64,000 nucleotides of DNA from the NCBI RefSeq assembly GCF_014466985.1, contig NZ_AP022826.1, positions 1,364,001-1,428,000 of the forward strand, given 5' to 3'. Source of the DNA: Nitrosophilus labii. GTDB lineage: Bacteria; Campylobacterota; Campylobacteria; Campylobacterales; Nitratiruptoraceae. Below are positions 6,291 to 50,371 of the stretch, in pieces (positions within the stretch are counted from its first letter, which is position 1; every line of letters starts with the position of its first letter). The notes below the pieces were generated by a model that was not told the DNA's origin, searched no databases, and saw only the letters and a list, made by a program, of their open reading frames with translations. The translations under genes and the position numbers were made by a program.

Positions 6291-6300
6291 AATTTTTCCT

Positions 6301-6397
6301 TGGAATTAGTAATTGGGAATTGGGAATTAGAAGAAATATGAAGATTAGGAATCAGGAATTAGAAATACCAATTCCTAATTCCAAATTCCTAATTACT
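6301..6397. repeat. 7-bp periodic palindromic array A (rpmA-obgE intergenic)
   Basis: Degenerate heptamers GGAATTA, GTAATTG, GGAATTG and GGAATTA open the array, and complementary units ATTCCTA, ATTCCAA, ATTCCTA and ATTACTA close it. The arm 6308-6330 pairs with 6375-6397 at 21 of 23 positions. On the rpmA coding strand the G-rich arm comes first. It lies in the 3' region of rpmA directly beyond the perfect hairpin at 6398-6425. Confidence 0.85.
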
Positions 6398-6425
6398 ATG
6401 ATTTTGGGCAAAAGCCCAAAATCAT
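6398..6425 (-). terminator. Perfect 12-bp hairpin overlapping the rpmA stop codon
   Basis: ATGATTTTGGGC (6398-6409) is separated by AAAA from its exact complement GCCCAAAATCAT (6414-6425). The stem includes the rpmA stop codon. There is no following U-run on the minus strand, so it could be a pause/stability hairpin rather than a strict intrinsic terminator. The essential genes downstream (obgE, proB, fmt) must be reached by read-through or by a promoter in the array region. Confidence 0.55.
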
Positions 6426-10379: not shown

Positions 10380-10423
10380 TTCAACCTCTTTTAAGTTTTT
10401 TGGTATTATATCATAAGAGATTG

Positions 10424-10530
10424 ACTAAATGATTTAATAGTTAAATAGTTGTATAACAGGTTTATGTTACAACATTTAACTACTCAACTAAATCTAACTC
10501 TTTTAGATATTCAACTATCTCATTATCAAA
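10424..10530. repeat. 7-bp periodic palindromic array B
   Basis: TTAAATAG/AGTTG-type heptamers on the left and complementary CAACTA/TTTAACT units on the right. 10438-10453 is nearly complementary to 10468-10482. This copy lies between divergent genes, upstream of both, unlike the other arrays, which follow stop codons. Confidence 0.65.
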
Positions 10531-10550
10531 CTAAACAGTAAAGGAGCGAT

Positions 10551-10742: not shown

Positions 10743-10831
10743 TTAATTTGAAAATTTGAAATAGCTATAAACTCTTTTTTTATAAAATATTATTATGAAA
10801 ATGATTATTATAAACAATAAAAGGATTAAGT

Positions 10832-11926: not shown

Positions 11927-11936
11927 ACTTATAAAC

Positions 11937-11971
11937 AAGGAGACAAAAATTTATTTTTACTTTGTCTCCTT
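11937..11971. terminator. Bidirectional terminator between pentaheme cytochrome and DUF2238 gene
   Basis: AAGGAGACAAA (11937-11947) pairs with TTTGTCTCCTT (11961-11971), an 11-bp perfect stem between convergent genes. The right arm lies inside the last codons of the minus-strand gene. Confidence 0.75.
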
Positions 11972-12574
11972 CTTTCTAATAAAAAAATATAAACTTGTGG
12001 CAAATATCGATCCCAACCCGTCAGATAACATATCTTTTTGAGCGTCCCAAATATCTCCTTGAGCACTCACATAATCTAGTCCCGCTTCAGGGTCCATATA
12101 TATAACCGCTAACCACTCAATGATCTCATATATGGCCGCAACCGTAAAAATAGAAAATATAGGAAACAAAAACATAATAACATTTGAATTAACGAGTTTT
12201 TTTCTATCTAAAAACTCAGCTATTGCATAAGCGTAAAAACCCACGCTAAAATGGGCTATACGATCATAATTGTTTCTCTCCCAGCCAAAAAGATTGTTGA
12301 CAAAATCAAAAGGAACGTCTTTAAAAGTATAATGTCCCCCTATAGTGTGCATATAGATCCATATACTCATCAAAAAATAAGCGATATTTGAAAATCTAAA
12401 TTTTTTATATGTAAAAACTAGAGGCAACACTACTAACAATACCGTTAGATTTTCCGCTATCCAAACGGTCTTATCCTTGGGATTGACAGAACAAAGTAAA
12501 AACAAAACAACATATATAATTAATAGAATATGTGGAAAAAATTTTTTAATTACACTCGAATCTAAAACTATCAT
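11957..12574 (-). CDS. DUF2238/YjdF-like integral membrane protein
   Basis: 205 residues, about six hydrophobic segments. The sequence WIYMHTIGGHYTFKDVPFDF followed by RNNYDRIAHFSVGFYAYAIAEF and DIWDAQKDMLSDGLGSIFAT is the DUF2238 (YjdF) signature, with conserved His and Asp residues at the membrane face. Function is unknown. The start lies 29 bp inside the upstream glycosidase gene, so the two are probably translated from one mRNA. Confidence 0.85.
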   Translation of the reverse strand: MIVLDSSVIKKFFPHILLIIYVVLFLLCSVNPKDKTVWIAENLTVLLVVLPLVFTYKKFRFSNIAYFLMSIWIYMHTIGGHYTFKDVPFDFVNNLFGWERNNYDRIAHFSVGFYAYAIAEFLDRKKLVNSNVIMFLFPIFSIFTVAAIYEIIEWLAVIYMDPEAGLDYVSAQGDIWDAQKDMLSDGLGSIFATSLYFFIRKKETK

Positions 12575-13355
12575 CTAAATCCTTAGGTAAAATCAAAGTT
12601 CTAAAATTTTCATCTCTTGCTTTTTGACACAACTTTGCTCTTTCTTGTTCATCTATAACATATATTTGCGCATATTCGACATTAAAAACAGGCTTACCTT
12701 TTTGAATAAACGGAGTTAAGAACTCACACTCATTAAACTCATGGCACTGCTCATTTAATGCAAAATCGAAATAATCCACTAAATCGTTTATTTGCATTAA
12801 ATCATTTTTTAAACCTATAGAAAGCCCTCTTAAATGCGCTTCCTGCGCCAAAAATTTGTTATATTCCAACTGATCTTCATACGTTAATCCAAATCCCGTA
12901 TTATTTATATAGCTATCTACATTATCTGGTTCAACCCCGTCACACCCTTTATTTTTAGCGATATCCAATCTCTCCTGCATAATCTCTCTTACAGTAGAAT
13001 TTCTAATATCTAACCATTTTTCACCTTCCCAACCATCCAAATCGTTTCCAATAGCCTCTTTAGGAAATTTATAAGCATCTTCTCTCCAATTTTCATAACT
13101 ACCTGCACTAAAATAGCAAATAACCTTTTTCCCTTGATTATGCAATGTTTCTATAATTTCTTCGCTAGTATCAAATAAATCGATATCATATAACTCTACA
13201 TTATAATCTAAGTTAATTGTACCTTGTAGTTGCCAATGCCAAGTTGTATTTACATCCGGTCTGTACCAATCAATCTCTGGGTCGCTCTCAACGCTTCCGC
13301 CTCCTCCACATCCATAGAGAAAAATTATCAAAATAAGAGCCGTCAAAATCCTCAT
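12546..13355 (-). CDS. GH114-type endo-alpha-1,4-polygalactosaminidase-like lipoprotein
   Basis: 269 residues. The lipobox is at LILIIFLYGCGGGG. The mature part has the GH114 TIM-barrel pattern: WHWQLQGTINLDYNVELYDIDLFD, KVICYFSAGSYENWREDAYKF, GCDGVEPDNVDSY (carboxylates at the strand end) and ALNEQCHEFNECEFL. GH114 enzymes act on galactosaminogalactan-type polysaccharides. In bacteria such as this one the substrate is unknown; an own exopolysaccharide is possible. Partner of the DUF2238 protein by overlap. Confidence 0.85.
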   Translation of the reverse strand: MRILTALILIIFLYGCGGGGSVESDPEIDWYRPDVNTTWHWQLQGTINLDYNVELYDIDLFDTSEEIIETLHNQGKKVICYFSAGSYENWREDAYKFPKEAIGNDLDGWEGEKWLDIRNSTVREIMQERLDIAKNKGCDGVEPDNVDSYINNTGFGLTYEDQLEYNKFLAQEAHLRGLSIGLKNDLMQINDLVDYFDFALNEQCHEFNECEFLTPFIQKGKPVFNVEYAQIYVIDEQERAKLCQKARDENFRTLILPKDLDDSFRFECN

Positions 13356-13429
13356 ACTATCTTTCCGAATCTTTTTATTCGATAATTAACGAGTAGTAAG
13401 TTTAAATAAAATCTACTTAATATACTATT

Positions 13430-13759
13430 TTATCCAAAATAGAGATTATAAATCTTTTCAATTTTATCTTTAAGTAAAGTCAAACTAACGTTTCTTCCAA
13501 CTCTAGCAAACTCTTTATTATCAAAAAATATAAGAATCGCGGGAGCACTAAAAATATTAAACTTGCTTCCAACTTCCGATACATCGGCTATATTTGTCTC
13601 AAATAGAACAACTTTGGGAAATTCTTTTGAAAAAAGCTCTTCGATTTTGGGTTTCAAAACTTCGCATACGTTACAATTTGGTGCACTCACATAAAGCAAA
13701 ACTGCATCATTTTGCAAAATCTCTTTTTCAATATCCTGTAAATTCTCAAGTTTTTTCAT
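13430..13759 (-). CDS. Thioredoxin-like protein (CNVC)
   Basis: 109 residues. A thioredoxin fold with VLLYVSAPNCNVCEVLKPKIEELF, active-site motif CNVC rather than CGPC, and FSAPAILIFFDNKEFARVGR containing the cis-proline (SAP). No signal peptide, so cytoplasmic. The atypical CXXC suggests a specialised disulfide reductase rather than the housekeeping thioredoxin; a second, CGPC thioredoxin is at 52184-52618. Confidence 0.85.
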   Translation of the reverse strand: MKKLENLQDIEKEILQNDAVLLYVSAPNCNVCEVLKPKIEELFSKEFPKVVLFETNIADVSEVGSKFNIFSAPAILIFFDNKEFARVGRNVSLTLLKDKIEKIYNLYFG

Positions 13760-13784
13760 TTGATTCCTTTATAAAATAGTGGCA

Positions 13785-13964
13785 TTAGGAATTTGGAATT
13801 GGGAATTAGTGGTAATAATTCATTGAAAATGGTTGAGTAGTTGAGTTTTTGAATTGAATTTTATAAATTATTTTAACTACTCAACATATTTAACACTTTT
13901 AACCAATAACCCAATATACCAAATAATCTAATTACTAATTCCTAATTCCAAATACACCAATATA
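13785..13964. repeat. 7-bp periodic palindromic array C (3' of SF1 helicase)
   Basis: Left units GGAATTT, GGAATTG, GGAATTA; right units CCAATAA, CCCAATA, ATTACTA, ATTCCTA, ATTCCAA. The inner arms GTTGAGTAGTT and its complement AACTACTCAAC form a second level. The right end reaches the stop codon of the helicase gene (13965). It lies between the helicase (minus) and the thioredoxin gene. Confidence 0.85.
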
Positions 13965-16133
13965 CTAATAAACATTAACTACTTTTCCCTCCTCTTTTAT
14001 ATACTCCAAAAACTGTTTATATATCTCCTCTTTACTCAATGTAGTGCTATCTCCTATACAGATAAGTTTTCTTTTAGCTCTCGTTATAGCCACATTTAAT
14101 CGCCTTAAATCTTTCAAAAAACCTATTTTGCCCTCTTCGTTGCTTCTAACAAAACTGATAATAATAACTTCTTTTTCTCTTCCTTGAAAACCGTCAACAC
14201 TTTTAACTTCAGTTAAAATCTCATCTTCACTTAAAACCTGTTTTATTCTCTTAACTTGAGATAAATATGGAGATATTACGCCAATATCCTCTTCTTTCAT
14301 CCCCATATTTAACAACTCTTTTACCAAATCAACTACTATCTCTGCCTCTTTTACATTCTCATAACTTGTTGATCTATCCGGTAAGCTCTCTGCAGCTTCT
14401 ATACCTTTTGTATCTAAAAAAACCAAAGGCTCTTTAACATCTAAAATATCTTCATATTTAGTTGGCTCTTTTAACTCAAAATCTGCCAATGTATGATTTT
14501 TTACACTTTCATCGGCAACCAACTCACCGTTATAAAACATCTTATTTGAAAAGCCCATTATTTTTTCATTCATCCTGTATTGAACTTTTAACATTTTTGA
14601 TAGATTTTTATGAGACTCTATCAACTTTTCAAAAAGCGAAATTTTAAGTTTTTTAGCCTCCTCACTGACTACTGTTGGAGGGAGCTGTTTATGATCTCCA
14701 GCTATAATGAATCTATTTGAGCGCATTATAGGAATTAAACTAGAAGGGATTATCTGTTGACTTCCTTCATCAATCACTGCCACATCAAACTCAAAGGATT
14801 TGAGCATTTCGCTCATAACCATTGAGTTTGTAGCCAAAACAACGTCGCAAGTTTTTATAATCTTTTTATAAGCCTCCTCCTCTTCAAGTCTCAAAGAGCT
14901 TACTAGCGACTCTATTTTCCTGTCATATTTTATCCACTTTGCCATAGACTGCATAGTCTGAACACTGATACCTCTTTGGCTTTTTCCCCTAGCAGCAAGC
15001 GTTAAAATCCTATCATAACTCATTCCCCTGCTTCTTGCTTGTGTCGGTTTGCTAAACTCCTCTCTTTTTTTGACTAACAGCGCTACTTCTTCCCAACCCT
15101 TTTTTATCGCTTCAGCTTCGAAACTCTTTTCATATTTAGCATGGATTGAAAACTCTTCAAGTTCGGACAATATCCTAGCAGGATGACCTATCCTTACTAA
15201 AGAGATATCTTTATCGGCTAGTCTTTGTAGCATATTGTCAACCGCCGTGTTGGAATCGGCTACGGCTAAGACTCTATTTTTTCTCTTTACTTCCTGTAAA
15301 ATTATCTCTATAAGTGTACTAGTTTTTCCGGTTCCAGGAGGTCCATGTATCAAAAATAGTTCCTTGCTTCCAATAGCAAAACTAACTGCCTCTTTTTGCG
15401 ATCCGTTCAAGTTTTGGTTGAAAACTTCGAAGTCAGATTTTAAGGATTGTGAGGGCTCTTTAAGACCTAAAGCTATGTTTCTAAGATATCTTTTTCTCCC
15501 ACTAGCGTCTCTTAATTCTTCAAGATTCTCTTCCATTCTTTTAAATGTTATATCGTTTATATATAGATCTATTCTGATTCCAGGCAAATAGACCCATTTA
15601 GGAGGATTATTTTCAAAAGCCACCGTAATAAAATGTTTTTTAACTTCACTAACCGTTCCTGTTATATCGCTTTTTAAAGGTTCGCCTCTACTTATTAAAA
15701 CTATATCGCCTGAACTGATTTCTGTATCTATAGATCTGTTTCTTCCAAACTTAACAAAATAAAGATTTAATCTTTTAGGCTGTTTTTGTCCTTTTAGATC
15801 TAAAACTGCCCTTCCGAAAATCTCTCGCTCATATCCGCTAAAACCTTTTATCTCATTTATTTGCTGAGATATTTCGGCAACCCTTTCAAGCTCTATAAGA
15901 TATTTATTTTCCTCCACGAACTGATGTATACTTTTTATCTCCTCCTCTTCTTCACGTGTAGGTATAATGTTTTTAGGAGGCTTTATCTTTACTCTCTTTT
16001 TTAAAACTATAAGAGTATAACCGTTTGCATGATATGTGGTTTTTATATCGCTCTTTTTTAGTTTAAGTTTTTTTAGTTGTTTTATAAACTCTTTATCATC
16101 AGTAACTTTTGGTAAAATTATCAGTATACTCAA
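13965..16133 (-). CDS. SF1 (Upf1/SMUBP2-like) DNA/RNA helicase
   Basis: 722 residues from a TTG start with RBS AAAGGAAC. Helicase motifs: Walker A IHGPPGTGKTSTL (about residue 265), Walker B AVIDEGSQQ, motif III AGDHKQLPPTV, QYRMNEKIM, SVDGFQGREKEVIIISFVRSN and LRRLNVAITRAKRKL. The order and the short 1B-type region resemble the IGHMBP2/Upf1-like branch of superfamily 1, present in many bacteria and archaea with unclear function. Residues 1-230 are family-specific and include a beta-barrel-like region. Confidence 0.9.
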   Translation of the reverse strand: MSILIILPKVTDDKEFIKQLKKLKLKKSDIKTTYHANGYTLIVLKKRVKIKPPKNIIPTREEEEEIKSIHQFVEENKYLIELERVAEISQQINEIKGFSGYEREIFGRAVLDLKGQKQPKRLNLYFVKFGRNRSIDTEISSGDIVLISRGEPLKSDITGTVSEVKKHFITVAFENNPPKWVYLPGIRIDLYINDITFKRMEENLEELRDASGRKRYLRNIALGLKEPSQSLKSDFEVFNQNLNGSQKEAVSFAIGSKELFLIHGPPGTGKTSTLIEIILQEVKRKNRVLAVADSNTAVDNMLQRLADKDISLVRIGHPARILSELEEFSIHAKYEKSFEAEAIKKGWEEVALLVKKREEFSKPTQARSRGMSYDRILTLAARGKSQRGISVQTMQSMAKWIKYDRKIESLVSSLRLEEEEAYKKIIKTCDVVLATNSMVMSEMLKSFEFDVAVIDEGSQQIIPSSLIPIMRSNRFIIAGDHKQLPPTVVSEEAKKLKISLFEKLIESHKNLSKMLKVQYRMNEKIMGFSNKMFYNGELVADESVKNHTLADFELKEPTKYEDILDVKEPLVFLDTKGIEAAESLPDRSTSYENVKEAEIVVDLVKELLNMGMKEEDIGVISPYLSQVKRIKQVLSEDEILTEVKSVDGFQGREKEVIIISFVRSNEEGKIGFLKDLRRLNVAITRAKRKLICIGDSTTLSKEEIYKQFLEYIKEEGKVVNVY

Positions 16134-16197
16134 TTTAGTTCCTTTAGGGCACCTCTAAAATTAGTTTGAGTATTATTTTATTACAAAGGCGGAATTT

Positions 16198-16989
16198 ATG
16201 CAAAAAAACATTTTCGTTGCGGCATTTGAAGATTTTATGACAACAAAATTTCTAACTTTGACGTTAGCACCCTTTTTTATAACTTTGCTTATCTTTTCAG
16301 GTCTAATTTTCGGAGCAGGAAGCGAATTTTTCGATATACTAAATCAACTTAGCCAAAATCCGGATGCTATCAACGATCCCCAAATCAAAGAGTTTGTACA
16401 AGAATACCCTATAATCTCGACAATTGCGGGAAGTTTTATTTTCCACGCAATAACGGGAGTTATTTTTGGAATATTGGGAACAGGACTTGCGATTTTGGCA
16501 TCTACGGCCGTAGCGCTTATCATAGTAGGTTTCTTTACGCCTATAATCGTAAAAGAGATTCACAAAAGACACTACTCTTACATACCAAAAGAGGGAGGAG
16601 TAGATTTTATCTCATATATAGTATTGAGTGTTAAATCTATCTTGAAATTTATAGCTGTTTTTTTTATATCAATATTTTTATATTTTATACCGCTTTTAAA
16701 TCTCATAGCTTTAAATATCCCTTTTTATTATCTCTTTTCATCTTTGTTGACTCTTGATGTGGGAGGAGAGATCTTAACCAAAGAGGAGCTTCAAAGAGTA
16801 CTGAATGAGAGAAAAAAGGAGATTTTAGGATCAACGTTTATCTTATATCTAATATCTCTAATCCCTTTTGCGGGTATGCTTTTGCAAGTATATTTCGTTT
16901 CTGTTTTAGCTCACCAATTTTTTAGAATAAAAGCCGACTTTTTAGATAAAAAACCGAAAGAGACTATAGAGGCCGAAATAGTGGAGTAA
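16198..16989 (+). CDS. EI24-domain integral membrane protein (CysZ-like)
   Basis: 263 residues, several long hydrophobic segments (about residues 20-45, 60-110, 155-185, 205-235). The N-terminus FVAAFEDFMTTKFLTLTLAPFF matches the EI24 domain family, which includes CysZ sulfate transporters. Family membership alone does not show the substrate. It is divergent from the helicase gene and convergent with the HD-domain gene, with one base between the stop codons and no hairpin. Confidence 0.75.
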   Translation: MQKNIFVAAFEDFMTTKFLTLTLAPFFITLLIFSGLIFGAGSEFFDILNQLSQNPDAINDPQIKEFVQEYPIISTIAGSFIFHAITGVIFGILGTGLAILASTAVALIIVGFFTPIIVKEIHKRHYSYIPKEGGVDFISYIVLSVKSILKFIAVFFISIFLYFIPLLNLIALNIPFYYLFSSLLTLDVGGEILTKEELQRVLNERKKEILGSTFILYLISLIPFAGMLLQVYFVSVLAHQFFRIKADFLDKKPKETIEAEIVE

Positions 16990-16990
16990 A

Positions 16991-18181
16991 CTATATTCCC
17001 TTTTCAAGACCTATTAATATCTCTTCGATATCTATATCGTAGATCTTAAAACCTTTATATTTTTTCAAAAGTCCGGATTTTGCATTTTTTAGCTCAACAG
17101 GATCCACACCGTTATGAATGGAGGCGGCGGCCTCTATAAAAGCTCCCAAGTGATCGGCAACTTTTATCAAAGAGCCGTCAACACCGTTATAACTGTCTGT
17201 ATTGTATTTTTTTATCATAAGCTCTTTATCTTCCACTTTTTCCAAAACACCATCAACAAATATTCTGTCGCTAAACTCATCTTTTATAAAGTACCCCATC
17301 TCTTCTCTAAGATAAGGAGGCAAAAGAGGAAGAAGCCTCTCTTCAATAACTCTCTCTTCATACTCTTTTAAAATCTTATCAAGCCCTTCTACTCCATATT
17401 TAACCGGGCTTATGATATCTCTCGTAAGAGCTTCGGCTAAATCGTGAAATAAAGCGGTAAAAAAATTGTTGTAAAACTTTTTATCACAAGCGCCGTACTC
17501 AATACTTAAAAGATATGTTAAAACAGCTACAAAAAACATATGTCCCAAAACGGAGGTTTGAGGGATTCTTGGAGTTTTTGCCCACCTTTTTTGAAATCTA
17601 AGCATCGCACAGATTTCAAGAAAACTTTTGCTTTTTATACCAAGTTCTAGTCTCCTAACACCCGTCAAATCCAGATAATCTTCAACTTGAGAGTCGATTT
17701 TCTCTTTTATCTCTTGTACACCTACGGCTTTTGGATAAAAATCGTAAATGATCCCAAACTCCCATCTACTAGCCAAAAAGTGAGCCGCGTTTAGCACCCT
17801 TCTCTCTAACTCCTGCGGATTGGAAGAGATATAATCTTCAAATTTGCTTTTTACTTTGTCATCAACAATCTCAAACAAAACTTTTTTAACATATTCATCA
17901 AGCTCTTTTTTCTTATGTTTTTGAAGATAATGAAACACAGGAGGCTTTAGATCCGTTACTACGGCTCTATACATAAACTCTACCACACCATAATCAATAA
18001 GCCTTCGCCAATCTATAGATACTGAGTTTTCACTCTCCTCTATTCTACCTAAAAGCCAGGCAATAACCATTTTATGAGACTGTTTATCAAGTTCTACAAA
18101 ATCAACCGGTCTTATCTGATCGTTCCATCTGTCAATGCTTGCAGTAGAAAAAAGAAGATATAAAAATTTTGGATTTATCAT
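16991..18181 (-). CDS. HD-domain phosphohydrolase
   Basis: 396 residues. The metal site is visible as H in VLGHMFFVAVLTY, HD in FFTALFHDLAEALTRDIISPVKYGVEGL, and a downstream Asp in LIKVADHLGAFIEA, the YfbR-type HD order. The N-terminal 190 residues are family-specific. It may act on nucleotides, but the substrate cannot be read from the sequence. It ends one base from the preceding convergent gene; the two exported-protein genes upstream (18200-19308) may share the transcript. Confidence 0.8.
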   Translation of the reverse strand: MINPKFLYLLFSTASIDRWNDQIRPVDFVELDKQSHKMVIAWLLGRIEESENSVSIDWRRLIDYGVVEFMYRAVVTDLKPPVFHYLQKHKKKELDEYVKKVLFEIVDDKVKSKFEDYISSNPQELERRVLNAAHFLASRWEFGIIYDFYPKAVGVQEIKEKIDSQVEDYLDLTGVRRLELGIKSKSFLEICAMLRFQKRWAKTPRIPQTSVLGHMFFVAVLTYLLSIEYGACDKKFYNNFFTALFHDLAEALTRDIISPVKYGVEGLDKILKEYEERVIEERLLPLLPPYLREEMGYFIKDEFSDRIFVDGVLEKVEDKELMIKKYNTDSYNGVDGSLIKVADHLGAFIEAAASIHNGVDPVELKNAKSGLLKKYKGFKIYDIDIEEILIGLEKGI

Positions 18182-18199
18182 AAAAGTTCCTTGGTGACT

Positions 18200-18832
18200 C
18201 TACTTAAAAACTTTTATCTCAATCTCGTCAAAAAATGTTTTTGCATCGGCTTTTGTCAAAATTCCAGCCCCGCCGCTGTGGGTTATAGTACTATCTTTAA
18301 TATCGGCTATCTTTTTTCCGTTTAAAAAAACTTCAATCTCATCGTCGCAAAAAACAACTCTTAATCTTTGCCAACCATCTTTAAGATCAATTTTTTTAGA
18401 GTATATCTTTTTAGATTCGCCGTTTTTTAAGGCCTTGAGTATAAATTCTTTGTTTAAAGGATCTATCATAGCTATATAGTAGTTTTTTCTATCTCTCATT
18501 CTCCATATAATCGCTCCTCCTTGATTCTCTCTTCCCTTATCGGCTTTAATTTTCGCTTCAATAGCGCCGTTTAAAAAATATACATCTTTGGTATATAAAA
18601 GATTAAACTGTTCACCACTGCTTCCTCTTGGATATCTCATATATACACTTTTTCCCTCAACCACTTCCCAGATACCAAGACTTTTTTGGCCTGTAGCGCC
18701 CATCATCCAACCTTCGGGAATATCTCCTATTTTTGTTGACTCAAAATCCTGTTTTAAAACCTCTTTTACCTCTTTACACTCACTTGCAAACAGCAAACTA
18801 ACTGTCATAATAAGCAAAACCCACTTTTTCAT
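18200..18832 (-). CDS. Exported concanavalin-like (DUF1080/LamG-type) protein
   Basis: 210 residues. Signal peptide MKKWVLLIMTVSLLFASECK, then a beta-sandwich pattern: FESTKIGDIPEGWMM, INGAIEAKIKADKGRENQGG-like strand, GAIIWRMRDRKNYYIAMID and GWQRLRVVFCDDEIEVFLNG. This resembles the 3-keto-disaccharide hydrolase (DUF1080) and LamG-like fold. A carbohydrate-binding or hydrolytic role is inferred. The remaining cysteine pair may form a disulfide. Confidence 0.7.
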   Translation of the reverse strand: MKKWVLLIMTVSLLFASECKEVKEVLKQDFESTKIGDIPEGWMMGATGQKSLGIWEVVEGKSVYMRYPRGSSGEQFNLLYTKDVYFLNGAIEAKIKADKGRENQGGAIIWRMRDRKNYYIAMIDPLNKEFILKALKNGESKKIYSKKIDLKDGWQRLRVVFCDDEIEVFLNGKKIADIKDSTITHSGGAGILTKADAKTFFDEIEIKVFK

Positions 18833-18846
18833 AACACATCCTTACT

Positions 18847-19308
18847 CTATTTACGAATTTTAAGAACCACTTCACCGCTGTTTACGGGAATTTTGAAAGT
18901 ATAAACTCTTTTTGAACTTACTACCTCATAACCGTCTTTTAGCTTTTTTATTTTAATAGGCGGTTTAGAAAAAGTAAATCTATATTTTCCTCTATCGCTT
19001 AAAAAGACTATTTTATTATCTTTATACCAAAAGTACAATATCGGATCTTGATAGTATCTAAGTATCCCCTTTTTCTTAACAAAGCGCAATTCTAACTTGT
19101 AAACGTTATCTTTGATAGGAGTTATTTTATATGATTTTAGTCTATATTCTCCATCAGCAAATCCGCCTATAAAGTTATATGTAGCATAAGTTTTATCTAA
19201 TATTTCAAAATCTAAGCTAGTTCTTTTTATCTCATCCTCAAAAGCTTTATAAATCTCCTCATTTGCGAAAAGATTAAAAATGATTAAAAATAGCAACAAA
19301 AATCTCAT
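18847..19308 (-). CDS. Exported protein of unknown function
   Basis: 153 residues. Signal peptide MRFLLLFLIIFNLFANEE, then a beta-rich periplasmic domain with repeated KL/ELRF strands and KDGYEVVSSKRVYTFKIP at the C-terminus. 14 bp upstream of the DUF1080-like gene, so probably co-expressed and co-localised. I do not recognise a family. Confidence 0.65.
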   Translation of the reverse strand: MRFLLLFLIIFNLFANEEIYKAFEDEIKRTSLDFEILDKTYATYNFIGGFADGEYRLKSYKITPIKDNVYKLELRFVKKKGILRYYQDPILYFWYKDNKIVFLSDRGKYRFTFSKPPIKIKKLKDGYEVVSSKRVYTFKIPVNSGEVVLKIRK

Positions 19309-19699
19309 TTAAAACTCTTTTTTTGTTTATTAGTAAAGCTTAATTACATATATATTCTTAAAAAAATTTTATATTTTTACTTTATAAATTTTAATTGTAA
19401 CTTCTCACCAAAATAATTTTTTTAAATCATAATTTTTTATTCGCTTTTATACAAATTTTCTTAAAATTTTCATATTGATTATGAGTTTTTACTCAACAAA
19501 ATAAAGCCTTCTTGAACCAATTTTTTTATATTATATTACTATAATTTTAATGTACCTTTTAATGTACCATTATTTTGTGAGAAGATGATATTATTATGAG
19601 GTTTTTGTATAAAAAGAAAAAATTATAATACACTATTTTTTAGGCTCTATTCACTTTACTTGCTAACTTATATCATAAACTTCAAGCAAATGCTTGAAG
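19309..19699. other. 391-bp AT-rich intergenic region without a gene
   Basis: No ORF with a plausible RBS on either strand. It contains a weak hairpin TGAGTTTTTACTCA (19481-19494), a direct repeat of TTTAATGTACC (near 19548-19570), and near its end the mdh-overlapping hairpin. It probably holds the promoter of the minus-strand exported-protein gene at 18847-19308. AT content is visibly higher than around it. Confidence 0.6.
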
Positions 19700-19701
19700 T
19701 T
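19678..19701 (-). terminator. Hairpin at the end of mdh
   Basis: AACTTCAAGC (19678-19687), loop AAAT, GCTTGAAGTT (19692-19701), perfect 10-bp stem overlapping the mdh stop codon. No U-run follows, so termination is inferred only from position. Confidence 0.6.
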
Positions 19702-20662
19702 ATAGACTTTCAAAAAATCCGCTATCTTCTAACATTACAATTGCACTTTTAACGCTTTGAACAGCTTTATCAAATTTCTCTTTTATTTTTGGCTCGAGTT
19801 CTATCTCAATAATTTTATTAACCCCTTTAGCGCCGATGACGCATGGTACGCCAATTGTAACATCTTTATGTCCATACTCACCATCTAAATAGACACAACT
19901 TGGAATTACTTTCTCCTCATCACTTAAAATCGCTTCAACCATAACTGAAACTGCTCTTCCCGGTGCGTAAAATGCTGAAGTTTTTAGATATTTTACAATC
20001 TCTGCTCCCCCTTGTTTTGTCTTTTGGATAATATCTTCCATATCCTCTTCACTTAAAAGTTGTGGCAAAGGAACGCCGGCTATACTTGTTATTTCTGGAT
20101 ACGGTATCATATCTTCACCATGGTTACCTATTACCATAGGTCTAACTTGACTCATACCAAAACCTATCTTTTGATATATTTGATAAGCCATTCTTGCTCT
20201 ATCTAATGCTCCACCCATACCAATTACTCTATTTCTCTCCCATCCTAAAACTCTAAACGCCACATAAGTCATAACATCTAAAGGATTTGAAACTACTAAA
20301 ACTATAGCATTTGGAGAATACTTCTTTATATTTTGCGCTACCTCTTTTACAATCTTTGCATTTATATCAAGTAACTGCATCCTTGTCATATCTTTTTTTC
20401 TTGGAACTCCTGCAGTAATAACAACCACATCACAATCTTTAACTTCTTCAGGTTTTACTACGCCTCTAACAACTGTTCCTCTTGGAGAGTAGTTTGTAGA
20501 TTGGCTTATATCTATCGCTTTTCCTATAGCAACCTCTGGAACAATATCATATAAAAGTATCTCATGACAAGTACCCGTAAACGCAAGTGAATAAGCAGCA
20601 GTTGCCCCAACTGCTCCCGCTCCTATAATCCCAACTCTTCTTCCTACCATTCTTCCTACCAT
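19700..20662 (-). CDS. mdh: Malate dehydrogenase (LDH-like type)
   Basis: 320 residues. NAD-binding GIIGAGAVGATAAYSLA, then ITAGVPRKKDMTRMQLL, whose Arg in PRK replaces the lactate-specific Gln and marks malate specificity, LVVSNPLDVMTY, and the catalytic GNHGEDMIPY (His). It interconverts malate and oxaloacetate with NAD(H), used in the reductive or oxidative TCA cycle. The start region carries an exact 12-bp tandem duplication of ATGGTAGGAAGA, giving MVGRMVGRR. RBS AAGGAGGTGAT directly precedes the first ATG. Only 12 bp separate it from etfBA, so one operon. Confidence 0.95.
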   Translation of the reverse strand: MVGRMVGRRVGIIGAGAVGATAAYSLAFTGTCHEILLYDIVPEVAIGKAIDISQSTNYSPRGTVVRGVVKPEEVKDCDVVVITAGVPRKKDMTRMQLLDINAKIVKEVAQNIKKYSPNAIVLVVSNPLDVMTYVAFRVLGWERNRVIGMGGALDRARMAYQIYQKIGFGMSQVRPMVIGNHGEDMIPYPEITSIAGVPLPQLLSEEDMEDIIQKTKQGGAEIVKYLKTSAFYAPGRAVSVMVEAILSDEEKVIPSCVYLDGEYGHKDVTIGVPCVIGAKGVNKIIEIELEPKIKEKFDKAVQSVKSAIVMLEDSGFFESL

Positions 20663-20674
20663 ATCACCTCCTTT

Positions 20675-22621
20675 TTAAGCTTTTAATCCAAATGTAAATT
20701 CACCTTTTTTTACTCTATCAATGAGTTCAGGCAAAATATCTTCATACTCTCCAACTATTCCAAAATCAGAGTTTCTAAAAATAGGCTCTTTTGGGTTATG
20801 ATTTATAGCAATTATTGTCTCACTCTCTTTCATACCGGCTAAATGCTGAATCGCTCCACTAATACCTACGGCAATATAAACTTTAGGTCTAACTGTCTTT
20901 CCAGTTTGGCCAATCTGCCTTGCATACTCTGCAACACCTTCATCAACCATTACCCTACTTGCAGCCCATTCAGATTTTATCCCTTTTTCTTTTAAAATCT
21001 TATCTAACTCTTTTACAAGCTCCATTCTATCACTACTTGTTCCTCTTCCACCTGATACTATAATATCTGCTTCAAATAGACTTTGTAGTCCTCCTTCTCC
21101 TCTTACAGTTTTTACAATTTTTGTAACAAAAAGCTCATCACTTAATTTTGGTTTAAACTCACTAATTTTTCCTTCTCTTTTTTCAACCTTTTGTGGAACA
21201 GGAAATGTTCCCGCTCTTGCAGTAGAGATTTGAGGACAGGTAAAACCTAAGATAGTTGCAAGCTTAGATTCTCCAAAAGTTGGTCTAATAGACTCAAGTA
21301 ATGGAGCATAAACAAATTTCTCTTTTGTCTTTTTATCTCTATAGATATGTTTTCCAATTTTAAGCTCTGTACAATCAGCAGTAACTCCAGAATCTGTTTT
21401 TACCCCTATTCTTGGAGCAAGCTCTCGCCCTGCAGTAGTAGCAGCAAATAGAGCAATTTCTGGATTTTTTTCTTTGATTATTTGGTAAAAAATCTCTGCA
21501 AATGGTAAAATCTGATACTCCTTTAACCTATCATCTTCTACAACTATTACTTCATCGCTTCCATAACTAATTAGTTCTTTTGCCAAAGGTTTTACATCTT
21601 TTCCTATTAAAACAGTTATTACTTTTGTATCTTCACCCAACTCTTTAGCTAAGCTTTTTGCAGGAGTTAAAAGCTCTAATGAGCTTCTTGCAATTTTGCC
21701 ATTTGCAACTTCAGCCCAAGTAAGAATTCCTCTTGCACCATTTCTAAAATCAACTACCTTTAAACTCTCGTCAATTTTTTGCTCTTTTTTCTTTTTTTCC
21801 TCTTTTTCTAAAACATTTTTTCCTTCTTTAAACTTCTTGATAAACTCATCAACCACCTCTTTTTCATTATGACCACTTACTATTTTTGCAGGAGCTCTTT
21901 CACTTTTAATATCCACAACTTTTGCAACAATTGTAGGACTGCCACTTAATCCAACTTTCTCTTCACTAAGTCCAATATCAGCTATATTTAAAATATTTAT
22001 CTCTTTTTCTCTTGCTTTTATAGTTCCTGCAAGTGATGGTCTTCTTGGAGGAATACCTGTTGGTGTAAAGCTTAAAACACATGGAATTGGCACTTCCAAT
22101 ATCTGATAGCCACCCTCAATTATTCTTTTTGCCTCTATTTTATTATCTTTTAAATGAGTACTTTCAATAAATGTAGCTTGTGGGACAACTAAATTTTCCG
22201 CAACTTGAGATGGTACATGAGCCGTATCCCCATCGCTTGTTTGTCTTCCTGCAACAATAATAAAATCTTCGTTAGCCCCTTTTCCATAACCCAAATGTTT
22301 AATAAGTGTTGCTAAAGCAAGTCCTGTTGCATATGTATCAGAGCCTGCAAGTTTTCTATCACTCAAAAGATAGGCTTCATCATAACCCATTGCCAAAGCT
22401 TTTTTTAATGACTGTTCAAATGCAGGAGGTCCCATAGAACAAACTATAAGTTTTGCTTCTGGATTCTCCTTTTTTAGCTGAAGTCCAGCTTCTAAAGCAA
22501 ATTGACAATCTTTGTTTATCATCGATTTTGCTTTTGTTCTATCCATCAAACCATCTTCACCCATTCTCATCTCAGAGGGAACGGGTACTTGTTTCATTAA
22601 AGCGATGATTGTTAATGCCAT
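20675..22621 (-). CDS. Fused electron transfer flavoprotein, EtfB-EtfA in one chain
   Basis: 648 residues. Residues 1-262 are EtfB: KQVPVPSEMRM, SMGPPAFEQSLKKALAMGYD, LSDRKLAGSDTYATG and GRQTSDGDTAHV (125-136). A Lys/Glu-rich linker (about 263-290) joins EtfA: GGRGTSSDRMEL, GQTGKTVRPKVYIAVGISGA and IIAINHNPKEPIF, the FAD-binding signature. The EtfB DGDT segment resembles clostridial bifurcating ETFs, whereas AMP-binding ETFs such as human ETFB have DDD-NQT at this place. Encoded as one gene where most bacteria have two. Downstream of the ETF-quinone oxidoreductase gene and before mdh. Confidence 0.93.
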   Translation of the reverse strand: MALTIIALMKQVPVPSEMRMGEDGLMDRTKAKSMINKDCQFALEAGLQLKKENPEAKLIVCSMGPPAFEQSLKKALAMGYDEAYLLSDRKLAGSDTYATGLALATLIKHLGYGKGANEDFIIVAGRQTSDGDTAHVPSQVAENLVVPQATFIESTHLKDNKIEAKRIIEGGYQILEVPIPCVLSFTPTGIPPRRPSLAGTIKAREKEINILNIADIGLSEEKVGLSGSPTIVAKVVDIKSERAPAKIVSGHNEKEVVDEFIKKFKEGKNVLEKEEKKKKEQKIDESLKVVDFRNGARGILTWAEVANGKIARSSLELLTPAKSLAKELGEDTKVITVLIGKDVKPLAKELISYGSDEVIVVEDDRLKEYQILPFAEIFYQIIKEKNPEIALFAATTAGRELAPRIGVKTDSGVTADCTELKIGKHIYRDKKTKEKFVYAPLLESIRPTFGESKLATILGFTCPQISTARAGTFPVPQKVEKREGKISEFKPKLSDELFVTKIVKTVRGEGGLQSLFEADIIVSGGRGTSSDRMELVKELDKILKEKGIKSEWAASRVMVDEGVAEYARQIGQTGKTVRPKVYIAVGISGAIQHLAGMKESETIIAINHNPKEPIFRNSDFGIVGEYEDILPELIDRVKKGEFTFGLKA

Positions 22622-22643
22622 CTTTACTCCTTATTGCTTTTTT

Positions 22644-22792
22644 ATTCGTAAATCGTAATTCGTGAATCGTAAATTGTGAATGGCAATTTGTAATTTAAAT
22701 TTTTGGTTTAATGAAGAGTGAGTAAGTGAGAAAGTTAGTAAGAAAATCTAACTCTTCACTCTCCCCAATCACCATACTCACCTAACTTCTAT
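22644..22792. repeat. 7-bp periodic palindromic array D (between etfQO and etfBA)
   Basis: Seven in-register units at 22644-22692: ATTCGTA, AATCGTA, ATTCGTG, AATCGTA, AATTGTG, AATGGCA, ATTTGTA. Then 22714-22790 has GAGTGA/AAGTGAG units and complementary AACTCTTCACTCTC units. The array reaches the etfQO stop codon (22793) and occupies almost the whole 171-bp spacer before etfBA. Confidence 0.85.
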
Positions 22793-24448
22793 TTACATAT
22801 AGTTATAATCTGGTCCATCTCCTCCATAAGGCACACTCCATATTATCTCTTCATTTACAGATTTTATATCGCATGTTTTGCAATGAACACAGTTTTCTGG
22901 ATGAAACCTTACCTCTTCCTTTCCCTCTCTATCGATATGAAGCTCATATACTTCCGCTGGACAAAAGTGAACACATGGCGCTCCATACTCTTTTATATTT
23001 AATCTTTTAAAACGCTCTTTATCATTTACTTTCAGATGGCAAGGCTGCATCTCATCATGCTCAGTTTTTGAGTAATAAACGTCTGTTACTTTATCAAAAG
23101 TTAAATTTCCATCAAATTCAAGTTTCTCTTTGAATCTATCTTTAAAAGACTCCCCTTTAAACTCTTTTAAACTTTTTGTTGTTTCACTATCAGGCTCAAG
23201 TTCTGGAACAAATACGCTTGCTCCTTGAGTCAAAAGCTGTATTCCCATCTGAAATCCACCAAATAACATCCCTCTTTTCATAACTGCTCTAAAATTTCTT
23301 GTAGGATATAGCTCCTCATAAATTAAAGAGCTATTAACCTCTCTTTCATACACTTTTAATCTATCAATTGAGGTATCGCCTAAAGAGATAGCATCTGCAG
23401 CAACTCTGCCTGCAATATTTCCTGACTCAACTGCCAAATGCACCCCTTTTAACCTTGCAGTAGTTAAGAATCCAGCACTATCACCAACTATTAAAAGATT
23501 ATAATCATAATATCTTGGGATTGAGTTCCATCCACCCTCAGGAAGTGTTTTTGCGCCAAACTCCAAAATTTTTCCACCCTCTATAAATTTTTTTACTTCT
23601 GGATGAGTTTTCCATATCTGCATTAGTGCATGGATATCTGTCGTTGGATCTTCATAATCAAGTCCAACTACAAGTCCTAAAGCAACTCTATTTTCAGTTA
23701 GTCCATAGATAAATCCTCCTCCAAATTCAACTCCATCTTTTAAAGGATATCCAAAGGTGTGATAAATCTCTCCCGGTTTTATTCTACCTTCTGGTACACT
23801 CCATAACTCCTTAACACCCAAAGAGTATATTTGAGGTCTGCTTTTTTTATCAAGTCTTAATCTTTTTATCGCTTTTTTGGCTAAACTTCCCCTTGTTCCC
23901 TCTGCTAAAATTGTAACTTTTGCTTTAACTATTGTACCCTCTACAAAATTTTCCATTCTTTTGCCGTTATGATCAATACCTGTGTCTTTCATTTTAGCGC
24001 CCACCACTTTGCAATTTTCATAAATAAGCTCATCAGCGCTAAAACCCGGATAAATCTCAACTCCTTTATCTTCAGCTATTTTTGCTAAATATCTACAAAT
24101 CTCTCCAAGTGAAGCTATGAAGTTACCTTCATTTGACATATATGGGGGATGAAAAGGGAGTTTTTTTACACTTCCATCATCTTCCAATTTCATAACAGTA
24201 TCTATATCAACTTTACTATCAAATGGAAGATTGTTAAATTCTTCTTCACTGAGTAGTGATTTTAAAGTTTCCGGTTTTATCACAGCTCCTGAGAGTATAT
24301 GCGAGCCAACATTTTTCCCTTTTTCTATAACCATTATTTTTAACTTATCACCATTTTTTTTCATCTGATTTGCCGCCGATATAGCAGCACTAAGCCCAGC
24401 CGGTCCCGCTCCAACAATGAGAATATCGGTATGTATAGTCTCGCTCAT
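22793..24448 (-). CDS. Electron transfer flavoprotein-quinone oxidoreductase
   Basis: 551 residues, full-length ETF-QO. N-terminal FAD site DILIVGAGPAGLSAAISAA, then GRVAADAISLGD (second FAD region), and the C-terminal 4Fe-4S domain with CVHFCPAEVYELH, HPENCVHCKTCDIKS and the terminal WSVPYGGDGPDYNYM that is conserved in the family. It passes electrons from reduced ETF to quinone at the membrane (menaquinone expected here). RBS AGGAGGCGAT. Head of the etfQO-etfBA-mdh operon. The single polypeptide corresponds to FixC+FixX of other systems. Confidence 0.95.
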   Translation of the reverse strand: MSETIHTDILIVGAGPAGLSAAISAANQMKKNGDKLKIMVIEKGKNVGSHILSGAVIKPETLKSLLSEEEFNNLPFDSKVDIDTVMKLEDDGSVKKLPFHPPYMSNEGNFIASLGEICRYLAKIAEDKGVEIYPGFSADELIYENCKVVGAKMKDTGIDHNGKRMENFVEGTIVKAKVTILAEGTRGSLAKKAIKRLRLDKKSRPQIYSLGVKELWSVPEGRIKPGEIYHTFGYPLKDGVEFGGGFIYGLTENRVALGLVVGLDYEDPTTDIHALMQIWKTHPEVKKFIEGGKILEFGAKTLPEGGWNSIPRYYDYNLLIVGDSAGFLTTARLKGVHLAVESGNIAGRVAADAISLGDTSIDRLKVYEREVNSSLIYEELYPTRNFRAVMKRGMLFGGFQMGIQLLTQGASVFVPELEPDSETTKSLKEFKGESFKDRFKEKLEFDGNLTFDKVTDVYYSKTEHDEMQPCHLKVNDKERFKRLNIKEYGAPCVHFCPAEVYELHIDREGKEEVRFHPENCVHCKTCDIKSVNEEIIWSVPYGGDGPDYNYM

Positions 24449-24600
24449 ATCGCCTCCTATAAAAAATATGCTTTTTAATTAGATAACTTAAATTAATTTA
24501 ATTTATAATTATTATTGATGTTTTTTTAGAAAAAAAAAGGAATATGTGTAGTTTTTATACATTTTTTTTGATGAAGTTAATCAATTTTTTTTAAAAAGTT

Positions 24601-24733
24601 AGGAGTATAGAGTAAGTAGGATTAAGAGTTAAGTGTTAAGAGTTAAGTTGTTATTGGCAAATTTTGGAATTGGAAATTAGGAATTTGTATTAAATGACTA
24701 TCCACATTTCCTAATTCCCAATTCCAAATATCA
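24601..24733. repeat. 7-bp periodic palindromic array E (3' of mutS2)
   Basis: The clearest array: 133 bp = exactly 19 heptamers in one register, starting AGGAGTA, TAGAGTA, AGTAGGA, TTAAGAG, TTAAGTG, TTAAGAG, TTAAGTT and ending ATTTCCT, AATTCCC, AATTCCA, AATATCA, then directly the mutS2 stop codon (24734). TTTGGAATTGGAAATTAGG (from 24663) is nearly complementary to the segment 24707-24728. Confidence 0.92.
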
Positions 24734-26926
24734 CTACAATTCAACAACAGTTGCTCCAAAACCTCCCATACTTGGAGGAGCATCGCTAAATGACTTTACT
24801 CTTGGATGATTTTTTAAAAACTCTCTAACGGCGCGTGCCAACTTTCCACTTCCTACCCCATGATAGATCAAAACTTCGTCAAAACCGGCCAAGAGAGAAT
24901 CTGATAAAAATTTATCGGTTTTTTCCAACGCTTCGTCTACTCTAAGCCCGTGCAAATCTAGTTTAACCGATAATTTCTTAGGCTTACTTACGCTAACTTT
25001 TGGAGCCTGAGTTTTCTTTTTAACAGGATTTATTCTCTTTAACTCGTTTAAAGGAACTCTCATCTTTATCCCGTCAAAATCCACATAAGCCTCTTTAGCT
25101 TTTAGACTTAAAACGACTCCTCTGTTTTTTCTATATTTTACGCTATCGCCCACTTTTATATCTTCACTTATCTTTTTCTCTTTGATTTTAGCCTCTTTAG
25201 CTTTTTGGTGAGCCTTGTTTAAAAGCCTGTGGGCATCTTTAGTATCTTTGGCCTTGATAGCAGACTTTGCATCGCTTATAGCCTCTTGAAAAATACGAGA
25301 AAGTCTCTCTTTTTCTTCTTTTAATTGAGTAAATAGAGAGTGTCTCTCATCTTCTAGCGTTCTTCTCAAAAACTCGACTCTCTCAATCTCTTCTTGCAGT
25401 TTAGAGTTTTTCTTTCTAAGCTCTCTTTCTAGTTCGCTTCCTCTCTCAATCAGCTCACTCAGTTTTGCTTGATCTTCACCGTACTCTTCTATAGCTCTTT
25501 TGACGATATTTAACGGTATGCCATATCTTTTTGCGGTCTCAAAAGCGTAACTTTTTCCTATGATTCCTTGTAAGAACTCATAAGTTGGCGCACCTTTTTC
25601 CTCATCGTAAATTGCCGCTACTAGTTCCACTTCATCATAAGCTGCCATTAAAGAAGCCAATCTTTTATGATGCGTGGTGATAGCTATCTTGATATCTCTT
25701 TTCATCAGCTCTTCTAAAATAACCTTAAAAAGAGTAGCGGCCTCGTCGCTATCCGTTCCCAACTCTATCTCATCCACTCCTACAAGAGCCTCTCTTTTTT
25801 GAAAAAGCCTGCTAAACTCAAGCATCCTTCCAGCAAACGTAGAGATATCGTTTTTGACGTTTTGGGGATCTTCTATGATAGGGATTATCTCTTTAAATCT
25901 TCCTATTCTAGAACTTTTAGGATCAAGTTTCATCGGCAAAAGATATTTTGCCAAATATGTCGCGGCTAAGATAGATTTTAAAAGCATAGTTTTCCCACCG
26001 GCATTTACTCCGGTAATAATCAAAACCTTTTTACTAAAATCTACGCTTATAGGCTTTGGATTGGCAATGGCTGGATGGATAAAATCTTTTAAAACTATTT
26101 TATCGTCGTTTTTTGGCAAAATGAAAAAAAGATTTTTGGCTTTAGCAAAATTGACTCTTGCTTGATAATGATCAAACCTATCAAAAGCTCTGTTAATATA
26201 CTCTATAAATTTTATCCATCTTAAAAAAACGGTACTGATCTTCTTTGCCCACTCTAGTCTAACCTCTTCTATCTGACTAATTATAGCGGCTTCTTTCTCT
26301 TTTAATTTGGTTATGGCTTCTGGTGCTACGTAAAAAAAACCTCCACTGCTTCTTCCTACGACCGTCCCTTTTAAAACATGATTGAATCCACCTCTTACAA
26401 GCAGTGTCTCCTCTTCGTTGACGTAGTGAATCTGCCTATCAACAAGATAGCCTTGTAGTTTGTTTGAGTTAAGAAGAGCTTGAAGTTTTTGACGAATCTG
26501 CTCTTTGTTCTGTTTTAGAGCCATCTGCAAAGATTCTAATCTATCGTCTATACTGACTCTTAATTCGCCTTTTTCGTCAAAGTAACCCTCGACCTCTTTT
26601 ATCTCCTCGGGTATATTGATAGAGTCTATAAACTCTTTTATCTTTCCTTCGAACTTAACTCTTTTTAGATATAAAAAATATCTAAAAATCTTAACAAACT
26701 CAAAAATCTCTTCGAGTCTCAAGACTCCCTGTTTTTTTATATGCAAAATCTCAGTATCTAGAGTTTTAACGCTAACGGGAGCTTTAAACTCATACTTTTT
26801 TAGCTCATTAATAAAATTAAAATGAAGGTTTATATCCCCTTCTATAAATAGAGGCTTTTCTCTAGCTAAAAAAGATTTAAACTCATTTATAAAATCGACT
26901 AAATCTAACGCTTTTACTAACTCCAA
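24734..26926 (-). CDS. mutS2: Endonuclease MutS2
   Basis: 730 residues. The ATPase domain has LIITGVNAGGKTMLLKS (about residue 315), a Walker B-like GVDEIELGTDSDEAA, and ITTHHKRLASL. A coiled-coil clamp follows (about 470-600), then a KOW-like region VGDSVKYRKNRGVVLSLK, and a C-terminal Smr nuclease domain with LDLHGLRVDEALEKTDKFL and YHGVGSGKLARAVREFLKNH. MutS2 suppresses homologous recombination and acts on collided ribosomes or branched DNA. It overlaps dam by 10 bp. Confidence 0.95.
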   Translation of the reverse strand: MELVKALDLVDFINEFKSFLAREKPLFIEGDINLHFNFINELKKYEFKAPVSVKTLDTEILHIKKQGVLRLEEIFEFVKIFRYFLYLKRVKFEGKIKEFIDSINIPEEIKEVEGYFDEKGELRVSIDDRLESLQMALKQNKEQIRQKLQALLNSNKLQGYLVDRQIHYVNEEETLLVRGGFNHVLKGTVVGRSSGGFFYVAPEAITKLKEKEAAIISQIEEVRLEWAKKISTVFLRWIKFIEYINRAFDRFDHYQARVNFAKAKNLFFILPKNDDKIVLKDFIHPAIANPKPISVDFSKKVLIITGVNAGGKTMLLKSILAATYLAKYLLPMKLDPKSSRIGRFKEIIPIIEDPQNVKNDISTFAGRMLEFSRLFQKREALVGVDEIELGTDSDEAATLFKVILEELMKRDIKIAITTHHKRLASLMAAYDEVELVAAIYDEEKGAPTYEFLQGIIGKSYAFETAKRYGIPLNIVKRAIEEYGEDQAKLSELIERGSELERELRKKNSKLQEEIERVEFLRRTLEDERHSLFTQLKEEKERLSRIFQEAISDAKSAIKAKDTKDAHRLLNKAHQKAKEAKIKEKKISEDIKVGDSVKYRKNRGVVLSLKAKEAYVDFDGIKMRVPLNELKRINPVKKKTQAPKVSVSKPKKLSVKLDLHGLRVDEALEKTDKFLSDSLLAGFDEVLIYHGVGSGKLARAVREFLKNHPRVKSFSDAPPSMGGFGATVVEL

Positions 26927-38431: not shown

Positions 38432-38444
38432 CTATTTATTATCT

Positions 38445-38492
38445 ACCAATACACTAATATACCAATAAACCAATTACTAACCTACTACTAAA
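38445..38492. repeat. 7-bp periodic array F (3' of gatA)
   Basis: Seven consecutive units: ACCAATA, CACTAAT, ATACCAA, TAAACCA, ATTACTA, ACCTACT, ACTAAAC, ending at the gatA stop codon (38493). Only the C/A-rich (plus-strand) arm is present, which is the G-rich arm on the gatA strand. Confidence 0.75.
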
Positions 38493-50162: not shown

Positions 50163-50169
50163 TTAAAAA

Positions 50170-50204
50170 GGGAGAAGGAAGAAGGTAGAAGGTGGTAAAT
50201 GAGC
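50170..50204. repeat. 7-bp periodic array G, left arm
   Basis: Five units in register directly after the previous gene's stop: GGGAGAA, GGAAGAA, GGTAGAA, GGTGGTA, AATGAGC. A partly complementary arm lies at 50323-50371. Confidence 0.7.
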
Positions 50205-50322: not shown

Positions 50323-50371
50323 TTTACCTTTTACTAACACTAAACACTTACTAACACTAAACACTATAAAA
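50323..50371. repeat. 7-bp periodic array G, right arm
   Basis: TTACCTTTTACTAACACTAA-type units, including the 17-bp direct repeat TTACTAACACTAAACAC type at about 50330-50364. Partly complementary to the left arm (AGAAGGTGGTAAA with TTTACCTTTTACT). Confidence 0.65.

What the first reader, a model, noticed from the sequence alone, without database searches (positions are those of the whole stretch)
24601..24733. Family of 7-bp periodic palindromic arrays following stop codons
At 24601 the sequence reads as 19 heptamers in one register up to the mutS2 stop codon. Similar arrays occur at 6301, 10424, 13785, 22644, 38445 and 50170, and weakly at 4395-4430. All but the 10424 array abut or closely follow the stop codon of a gene, and on that gene's strand the G-rich arm usually precedes the C-rich arm, so the RNA folds as a long imperfect hairpin. 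Heptanucleotide tandem repeats are known from cyanobacteria (STRRs); I know of no such family described for Campylobacterota. Possible roles are termination, mRNA stability or recombination, or slippage-born junk.
Basis: seen in the sequence. Interest (0 to 1): 0.8.

Follow-up and report, generated by a model that had tools for sequence, protein, structure and literature searches.

The report
Inward-pointing seven-base repeat arrays between genes
Between its genes this bacterium carries blocks of degenerate 7- or 8-letter repeats that always run inward from the flanking genes on the C-poor strand; the same layout turns up in at least ten phyla, which suggests scars of a shared repeat-adding DNA repair process rather than working RNA hairpins.

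Summary
In 864 kb of this genome, intergenic lag-7 segments number 34 against 0.2 in shuffles. Corrections: the 10424 and 38445 arrays have period 8, 4395 is not significant, and only about half of the two-armed arrays fold better than shuffled RNA.

Arms are C-poor words (3.8% C, 27.8% G) and point inward from the flanking genes. Per intergenic gap the order is G-words then C-words (58 gaps) or one arm type alone (46), and never C then G (0). It held in array loci from many phyla (32:0) and in a held-out genome of another family (8:0). The two arms often carry different words, so pairing does not explain it. Arrays tend to start at the stop codon, are gained in operon gaps, are heterogeneous at birth, and are replaced by other words at orthologous sites.

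Best explanation (0.4): scars in which both 3' ends of an intergenic break were extended inward by serial, error-prone 7/8-nt copying and then joined. No reverse transcriptase or Ku is required. Heptamer arrays were already known in Xanthomonas, Nostoc and Beggiatoaceae: a new variant of a known kind.

The parts
24601..24733 (.). Array: G-words 24601-24690 (TTAAGAG then GGAATTR families), C-words about 24705-24733 (YAATTCC); ends at the mutS2 stop codon
   Evidence: lag-7 identity 0.563 vs 0.29 shuffled; segment 24597-24733
24663..24728 (.). Imperfect hairpin: arms 24663-24683 and 24708-24728, 95% complementary
   Evidence: z -4.8 on the minus strand
24734..26926 (-). mutS2 (MutS_V, MSSS, Smr domains); its stop codon abuts the array
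   Evidence: Pfam; same C-terminus as relatives
6300..6398 (.). GGAATTR array, G-words then C-words; conserved in G002, replaced by an ATTAGTC array at the orthologous place in G003
10421..10534 (.). Period-8 G-then-C array between divergent genes; absent in G002 and G003, so gained in this lineage
13781..13960 (.). Nested array: outer GGAATTR / YAATTCC arms, inner period-8 GTTGAGTA / CTACTCAA arms
22644..22790 (.). Array: TCGTAAA / AGTGAGTA words, then C-words (ACTCTTCACTCTCC...)
38436..38492 (.). Single C-arm, period 8, ending at the stop codon of the amidase gene 38493-39830 (-)
   Evidence: shorter spacer in G003
50166..50201 (+). G-arm (GAAGGNN), starting 3 nt after the stop of 49839-50162 (+)
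50331..50366 (+). Facing C-arm (CTAACACTAAACACTTA, two 17-nt copies) near the convergent gene 50418 (-)
   Evidence: tandem repeat score 70, sequence

Best explanation
The arrays are intergenic repair scars, not regulatory RNAs. Shown: each array is at most one block of C-poor 7- or 8-nt words starting at or near the left functional boundary (stop codon or ribosome-binding site), followed by at most one block of the complementary type ending at or near the right boundary, so that both C-poor strands run 5' to 3' toward the middle. The two blocks can be made of unrelated words. Units resemble their neighbours most, and similarity falls off with distance. Inferred: a break or gap opened between two genes; each free 3' end was extended inward by repeated slip-back copying of the last 7 or 8 nt with frequent errors; the two extended ends were then joined, giving the same geometry as two fused telomeres. 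Selection keeps only events that spare coding sequence and ribosome-binding sites. Repeated breakage at such arrays, some of which are hairpin-prone, would overwrite leftover spacer up to the gene boundaries and exchange one word family for another. The enzyme is unknown. It is not a detectable reverse transcriptase and does not need Ku, so an ordinary DNA polymerase is the default candidate.
For: Arm order per gap: GC 56, GGC 2, G 23, C 22, CC 1, CG 0 in three genomes of the genus; 32 GC: 0 CG in loci from other phyla; 8:0 in a held-out genome of another family, prediction written down first. Single arms in tandem gaps: 49 inward, 6 outward. The arms are often different words, yet ordered (L203, L204, L226). 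No replication-strand bias, 27 vs 29. C-poor strand composition A 0.346, T 0.338, G 0.278, C 0.038. Serial copying: identity 0.66, 0.577, 0.519, 0.475, 0.423 at lags 7, 14, 21, 28, 35. Heterogeneous at birth: the 10424 array is absent in G002 and G003, yet its units agree at only 46%. Old spacer is replaced, not just interrupted. G003 has 140-250 nt arrays in operon gaps that are 8-26 nt in G000/G002. No RVT_1 in array-rich G002, G003, G017, G083; no Ku.
Against: No enzyme, no mutant and no observed event; nothing here explains why the extended strand must lack C. Inward geometry at gene boundaries is formally the same as 'G-words on the coding strand after stops, C-words before starts', so a transcript-level cause cannot be excluded by geometry alone. 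Two G024 loci (L334:4545, L337:9902) carry nearly identical long arrays, which shows that some arrays are copied between loci. Arms of one array are more alike than arms of different arrays (mean score 15.4 vs 11.6), which fold-back copying would also give. The stop-codon abutment was not significant in the held-out genome (5 of 19 vs 2.4 expected).
Confidence: 0.4

Rival explanations
1. Ordinary replication slippage makes a G-rich tandem array, nascent-strand fold-back copies it into an inverted arm, and selection removes arrays from coding and promoter DNA.
For: Slippage is the usual account of heptamer repeats (PMC4692102). Unit similarity decays with distance. Many arrays have well-matched arms. 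Fold-back on a nascent G-rich strand would give G-first palindromes.
Against: Arms made of different words keep the order. No unit-length indels in 8 orthologous arrays at about 92% identity, while neighbouring units already differ by about 34% and whole arrays are gained or replaced within the genus. No leading/lagging bias.
Confidence: 0.25
2. Dispersed copying: arrays spread from existing arrays by template switching, gene conversion or a MITE-like mobile unit, which gives each genome its own dialect of words.
For: Genome-specific words at orthologous sites: GGAATTR in G000/G002, ATTAGTC in G003. Nearly identical arrays at two G024 loci. The same word in many phyla.
Against: No target duplication or fixed ends seen at the G000/G002 empty site. 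No constant core sequence. Inserted single arms would be expected in both orientations next to a stop codon, but are 27:3.
Confidence: 0.2
3. Selected RNA or DNA element: hairpins at gene ends that act in termination, 3'-end stability or supercoil control, kept for structure while sequence drifts.
For: Arrays abut stop codons (43 of 109 within 5 nt vs 15 expected). They persist at some orthologous sites with new words. Half of the two-armed arrays fold better than shuffles.
Against: Single arms and mismatched arms are common. No terminator-like site at arrays in window 5001-25000. The highest share is in tandem gaps, and arrays are gained within tight operon gaps. Many orthologous sites lack an array. 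Most relatives lack arrays altogether.
Confidence: 0.12

Closest known systems
GGGAATC arrays of Xanthomonas and GGGGA(C/T)T arrays of Nostoc/Anabaena (PMC4692102)
   Same: Heptamer, G-rich, intergenic, dispersed; close to the 3' end of the upstream ORF; [quoted passage not shown] 70 and 75 convergent pairs in Xanthomonas; words and lengths differ between related species.
   Different: Here the words are many and degenerate, C-poor but not G4-type, with 7- and 8-nt periods mixed; the two arms may carry different words; arm order is near absolute and holds across phyla.
Cyanobacterial STRR heptanucleotide repeats (Calothrix, Anabaena; cited in PMC4692102)
   Same: Short tandem heptamers in intergenic DNA; GGAATTR itself occurs in cyanobacterial arrays.
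   Different: Not, to my knowledge, described as inward-pointing pairs; largely perfect repeats, degenerate here.
TAACTGA direct repeats of Beggiatoaceae, Cyanobacteria and Bacteroidetes (PMC4679880)
   Same: Heptamer, intergenic, patchy across distant phyla.
   Different: One fixed word with few variants, mostly just upstream of start codons, proposed as binding sites for a translational regulator.
REP/BIME elements and MITEs
   Same: Extragenic, palindromic, many copies.
   Different: No conserved sequence or ends; words turn over between sister species.
DRT10 reverse transcriptase and telomerase repeats (PMC12632851; geometry of fused telomeres from general knowledge)
   Same: Short tandem repeats; fused telomeres also read G-strand inward from both sides.
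   Different: One RNA-templated word per enzyme (9 nt in one DRT10); array-rich genomes here lack a detectable RT.

Membership tests
Prokaryotic heptamer SSR arrays (Xanthomonas/Nostoc type) | period of 7 nt | tested here: met
   34 vs 0.2 lag-7 segments; period 8 is a minority (12 vs 0.8)
[quoted passage not shown]
   49:6 for single arms; 43 of 109 within 5 nt of a stop
Prokaryotic heptamer SSR arrays (Xanthomonas/Nostoc type) | G-tracts able to form G-quadruplexes (GGGAATC, GGGGAYT) | tested here: not met
   words such as GGAATTR, ATTAGTC and GAAGGNT lack runs of three or more G in most units
TAACTGA repeats | a single fixed word TAACTGA, placed upstream of start codons | tested here: not met
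   many words; G-arms start at stop codons
Intrinsic terminators | GC-rich stem followed by a T tract | tested here: not met
   no terminator-like site at arrays in window 5001-25000
REP/MITE | conserved ends, target-site duplication | tested here: inconclusive
   no constant ends seen; one near empty site (10424) shows spacer replacement without an evident duplication; other pairs too diverged
RT- or telomerase-like repeat addition | reverse transcriptase encoded | tested here: not met
   RVT_1 absent in array-rich G002, G003, G017, G083
Ku-dependent end joining | Ku encoded | tested here: not met
   no Ku match over cut-off in 60 genomes

The most novel reading that the evidence does not exclude
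Many bacterial phyla share an undescribed, RT-independent repair reaction that caps broken 3' ends with serially copied, C-poor 7/8-nt repeats and joins the capped ends, leaving inward-facing telomere-fusion-like scars that make up 4-14% of intergenic DNA in this genus.
Probability: 0.25. Interest if true: 0.9.

Novelty: new variant of a known kind. Interest (0 to 1): 0.62.

Why it matters
Heptamer repeats have been reported piecemeal in Xanthomonas, cyanobacteria and Beggiatoaceae with no agreed origin. One orientation rule that holds across phyla, independent of word, base pairing and replication strand, gives a shared constraint any mechanism must meet. It makes the old question of why seven bases testable by looking for newly formed arrays in strain collections and repair mutants. 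It also warns against reading such spacers as conserved regulatory RNA.

Tried and rejected
Hairpin as the cause of the G-first order: rejected as a general cause, because unrelated arms keep the order and single arms obey it. Rho-site masking (C-rich RNA hidden by a preceding G-rich arm): same reason, and C-words lie upstream of starts. Telomerase-like RT: RVT_1 missing in the array-richest same-genus genome G003. Ku end joining: absent. Leading/lagging slippage: no strand bias. Array-supplied stop codons: arrays rarely run more than 6 nt into the gene; TAG is 35% vs 21% of stops among 55 genes, only suggestive. Naming the genome through its plasmid-like contig: no PLSDB match. The two 'C-first' arrays flagged are a doubtful array (L054:19212) and a segment whose detected start lies before the true array (window 22622).

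Full report
Check of the observation. The 133 bp before the mutS2 stop codon (24601-24733) agree with themselves at lag 7 at 56.3% of positions, against 29.0 +- 4.0% in dinucleotide shuffles, with echoes at lags 14 and 21 and nothing at 5 or 9. To test the family I took a systematic 41% sample of the genome (864 kb with the window), called genes with a simple Markov caller and counted maximal lag segments in 91.7 kb of intergenic DNA: 34 at lag 7 against 0.2 in shuffles, 21 at lag 14, 12 at lag 8, 8 at lag 21, and 0-5 at other lags. The family is real. It is not purely heptameric, and only partly palindromic.

What the arrays look like. Words are varied: GGAATTR, GAAGGNT, TAGTCNN, TAGTTGA, AGTGAGT and others, with an ATTRGNN consensus common to the largest group. 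The sister genome G003 has more arrays (40 vs 0.8 at lag 7, 19 vs 0.2 at lag 8), and arrays fill 4, 6.5 and 14% of intergenic DNA in G000, G002 and G003. On one strand each arm is nearly free of C (3.8%, against 27.8% G). Neighbouring units are 66% identical, falling to 58, 52, 48 and 42% at two to five units' distance, the mark of serial neighbour-to-neighbour copying.

The orientation rule. Per intergenic gap I find G-then-C 58 times, G alone 23, C alone (one or two arms) 23, and C-then-G zero times. Non-array spacers, classed by skew shape, show no such preference (53 G-first, 97 C-first). In tandem gaps single arms obey the same rule: G-words lie next to the stop codon on the coding strand, or C-words next to the start, 49 to 6. 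Left and right arms frequently use unrelated words, for example ATTAGTC words facing GAAGCNGT words at G003 L082:16860-16981, so base pairing is not the cause. About half of the two-armed arrays do fold significantly (27 of 50 with z below -3, controls 12 of 150), including the one at 24601 (z -4.8).

Other organisms. The four-unit word GGAATTR occurs in arrays of Cyanobacteria, Bacteroidota, Chloroflexota, Armatimonadota (Fimbriimonadaceae), Verrucomicrobiota, Clostridia and Selenomonadaceae, Acidobacteriota, Patescibacteria, Spirochaetota (Treponema), Gammaproteobacteria and Campylobacterales (phyla assigned from the record titles). In those 80 loci the arm order was G-C 32, C-G 0. I then wrote down predictions and sampled 400 kb of G024, of another family in the order, with 56% GC: lag 7 gave 30 against 1, arm order G-C 8, C-G 0, single arms inward 11 and outward 1. 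The stop-codon prediction was not significant there (5 of 19 against 2.4). Within the phylum the arrays are patchy: 11 of 397 genomes for three GGAATTN units, and strong in only about eight of 60 near relatives for ATTRGNN.

Placement and history. Arrays occupy 22% of tandem gaps of at least 60 nt, 10% of divergent and 16% of convergent ones; 43 of 109 start within 5 nt of a stop codon, against 15 expected, and few run into the gene. Between G000 and G002 (about 92% identical), eight orthologous arrays differ by substitutions and 1-4 nt indels, never by a unit. Between G000 and G003 the same gaps carry different words or no array, and G003 has 140-250 nt arrays in operon gaps that are 8-26 nt in the others. 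The 10424 array is missing in both G002 and G003, so it arose in this lineage; its units already agree at only 46% and it replaced, rather than split, the old spacer. At L060:4548 an inner hairpin of one word sits in the loop of an outer one that G003 has alone. The 24601 array lies at the edge of a 5.4 kb ETF/ETF-QO segment that G002 lacks, so its own birth cannot be dated.

Interpretation. Slow slippage cannot make 10-20 units that differ by a third from each other within the time in which whole arrays come and go. Geometry, independence of the two arms, lack of replication-strand bias, C-poverty of the inward 3' strand, replacement of spacer and abutment on functional boundaries all fit extension of two 3' ends followed by joining. 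The repeat-adding step is inferred, not shown. It is not a detectable RVT_1 enzyme (absent from G002, G003, G017, G083) and needs no Ku. What cannot be excluded is a transcript-level cause, since 'inward' and 'G after stops, C before starts' are the same statement; fold-back copying for the matched arrays; and copying between loci, which happens at least in G024.

Relation to the literature. PMC4692102 describes GGGAATC arrays in Xanthomonas with 70-75 convergent pairs and the same coding-strand preference near ORF ends, and GGGGAYT arrays in Nostoc; it settles on no mechanism. PMC4679880 describes TAACTGA arrays shared by distant phyla. My searches found no description for Campylobacterota and no cross-phylum orientation rule, but the library lacks most subscription journals, so novelty of the rule is provisional.

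Limits. Gene calls are my own; 41% of the genome was sampled, not all; thresholds for arms are mine; the cross-phylum ORF calls are crude; two MAGs are fragmented and some stretches are withheld; an array-poor genome could not be run as a negative control.

Noticed in passing
window 56761-56972; also L045:4642, L049:2370, L062:3050, L075:11102, G002 C1:8738, G003 L088:8587: Dispersed repeat with inverted ends GAATGCTCTGAAAAATTA / TTTGTAATTTTTCAGAG shared by three species of the genus; MITE-like and separate from the heptamer arrays.
   Followed up: partly
window 19272-24739: A 5.4 kb segment with electron-transfer flavoprotein and ETF-quinone oxidoreductase genes is absent from the near relative G002, which has 91 bp there; two arrays lie inside or at its edge.
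   Followed up: partly
G024 L334:4545-4813 and L337:9902-10213: Two nearly identical long ATTGGTC/ATTGGGC arrays with the same central sequence, so arrays or their cassettes can be copied between loci.
   Followed up: no
G003 L081:3510-3918 and L096:12677-13085: Identical arrays beside two copies of a region about 97% identical to G000 L058:17-1228, perhaps an rRNA operon, which would suggest concerted evolution of flanking arrays.
   Followed up: no
window 44011-44486: Cluster of four tRNA genes.
   Followed up: no
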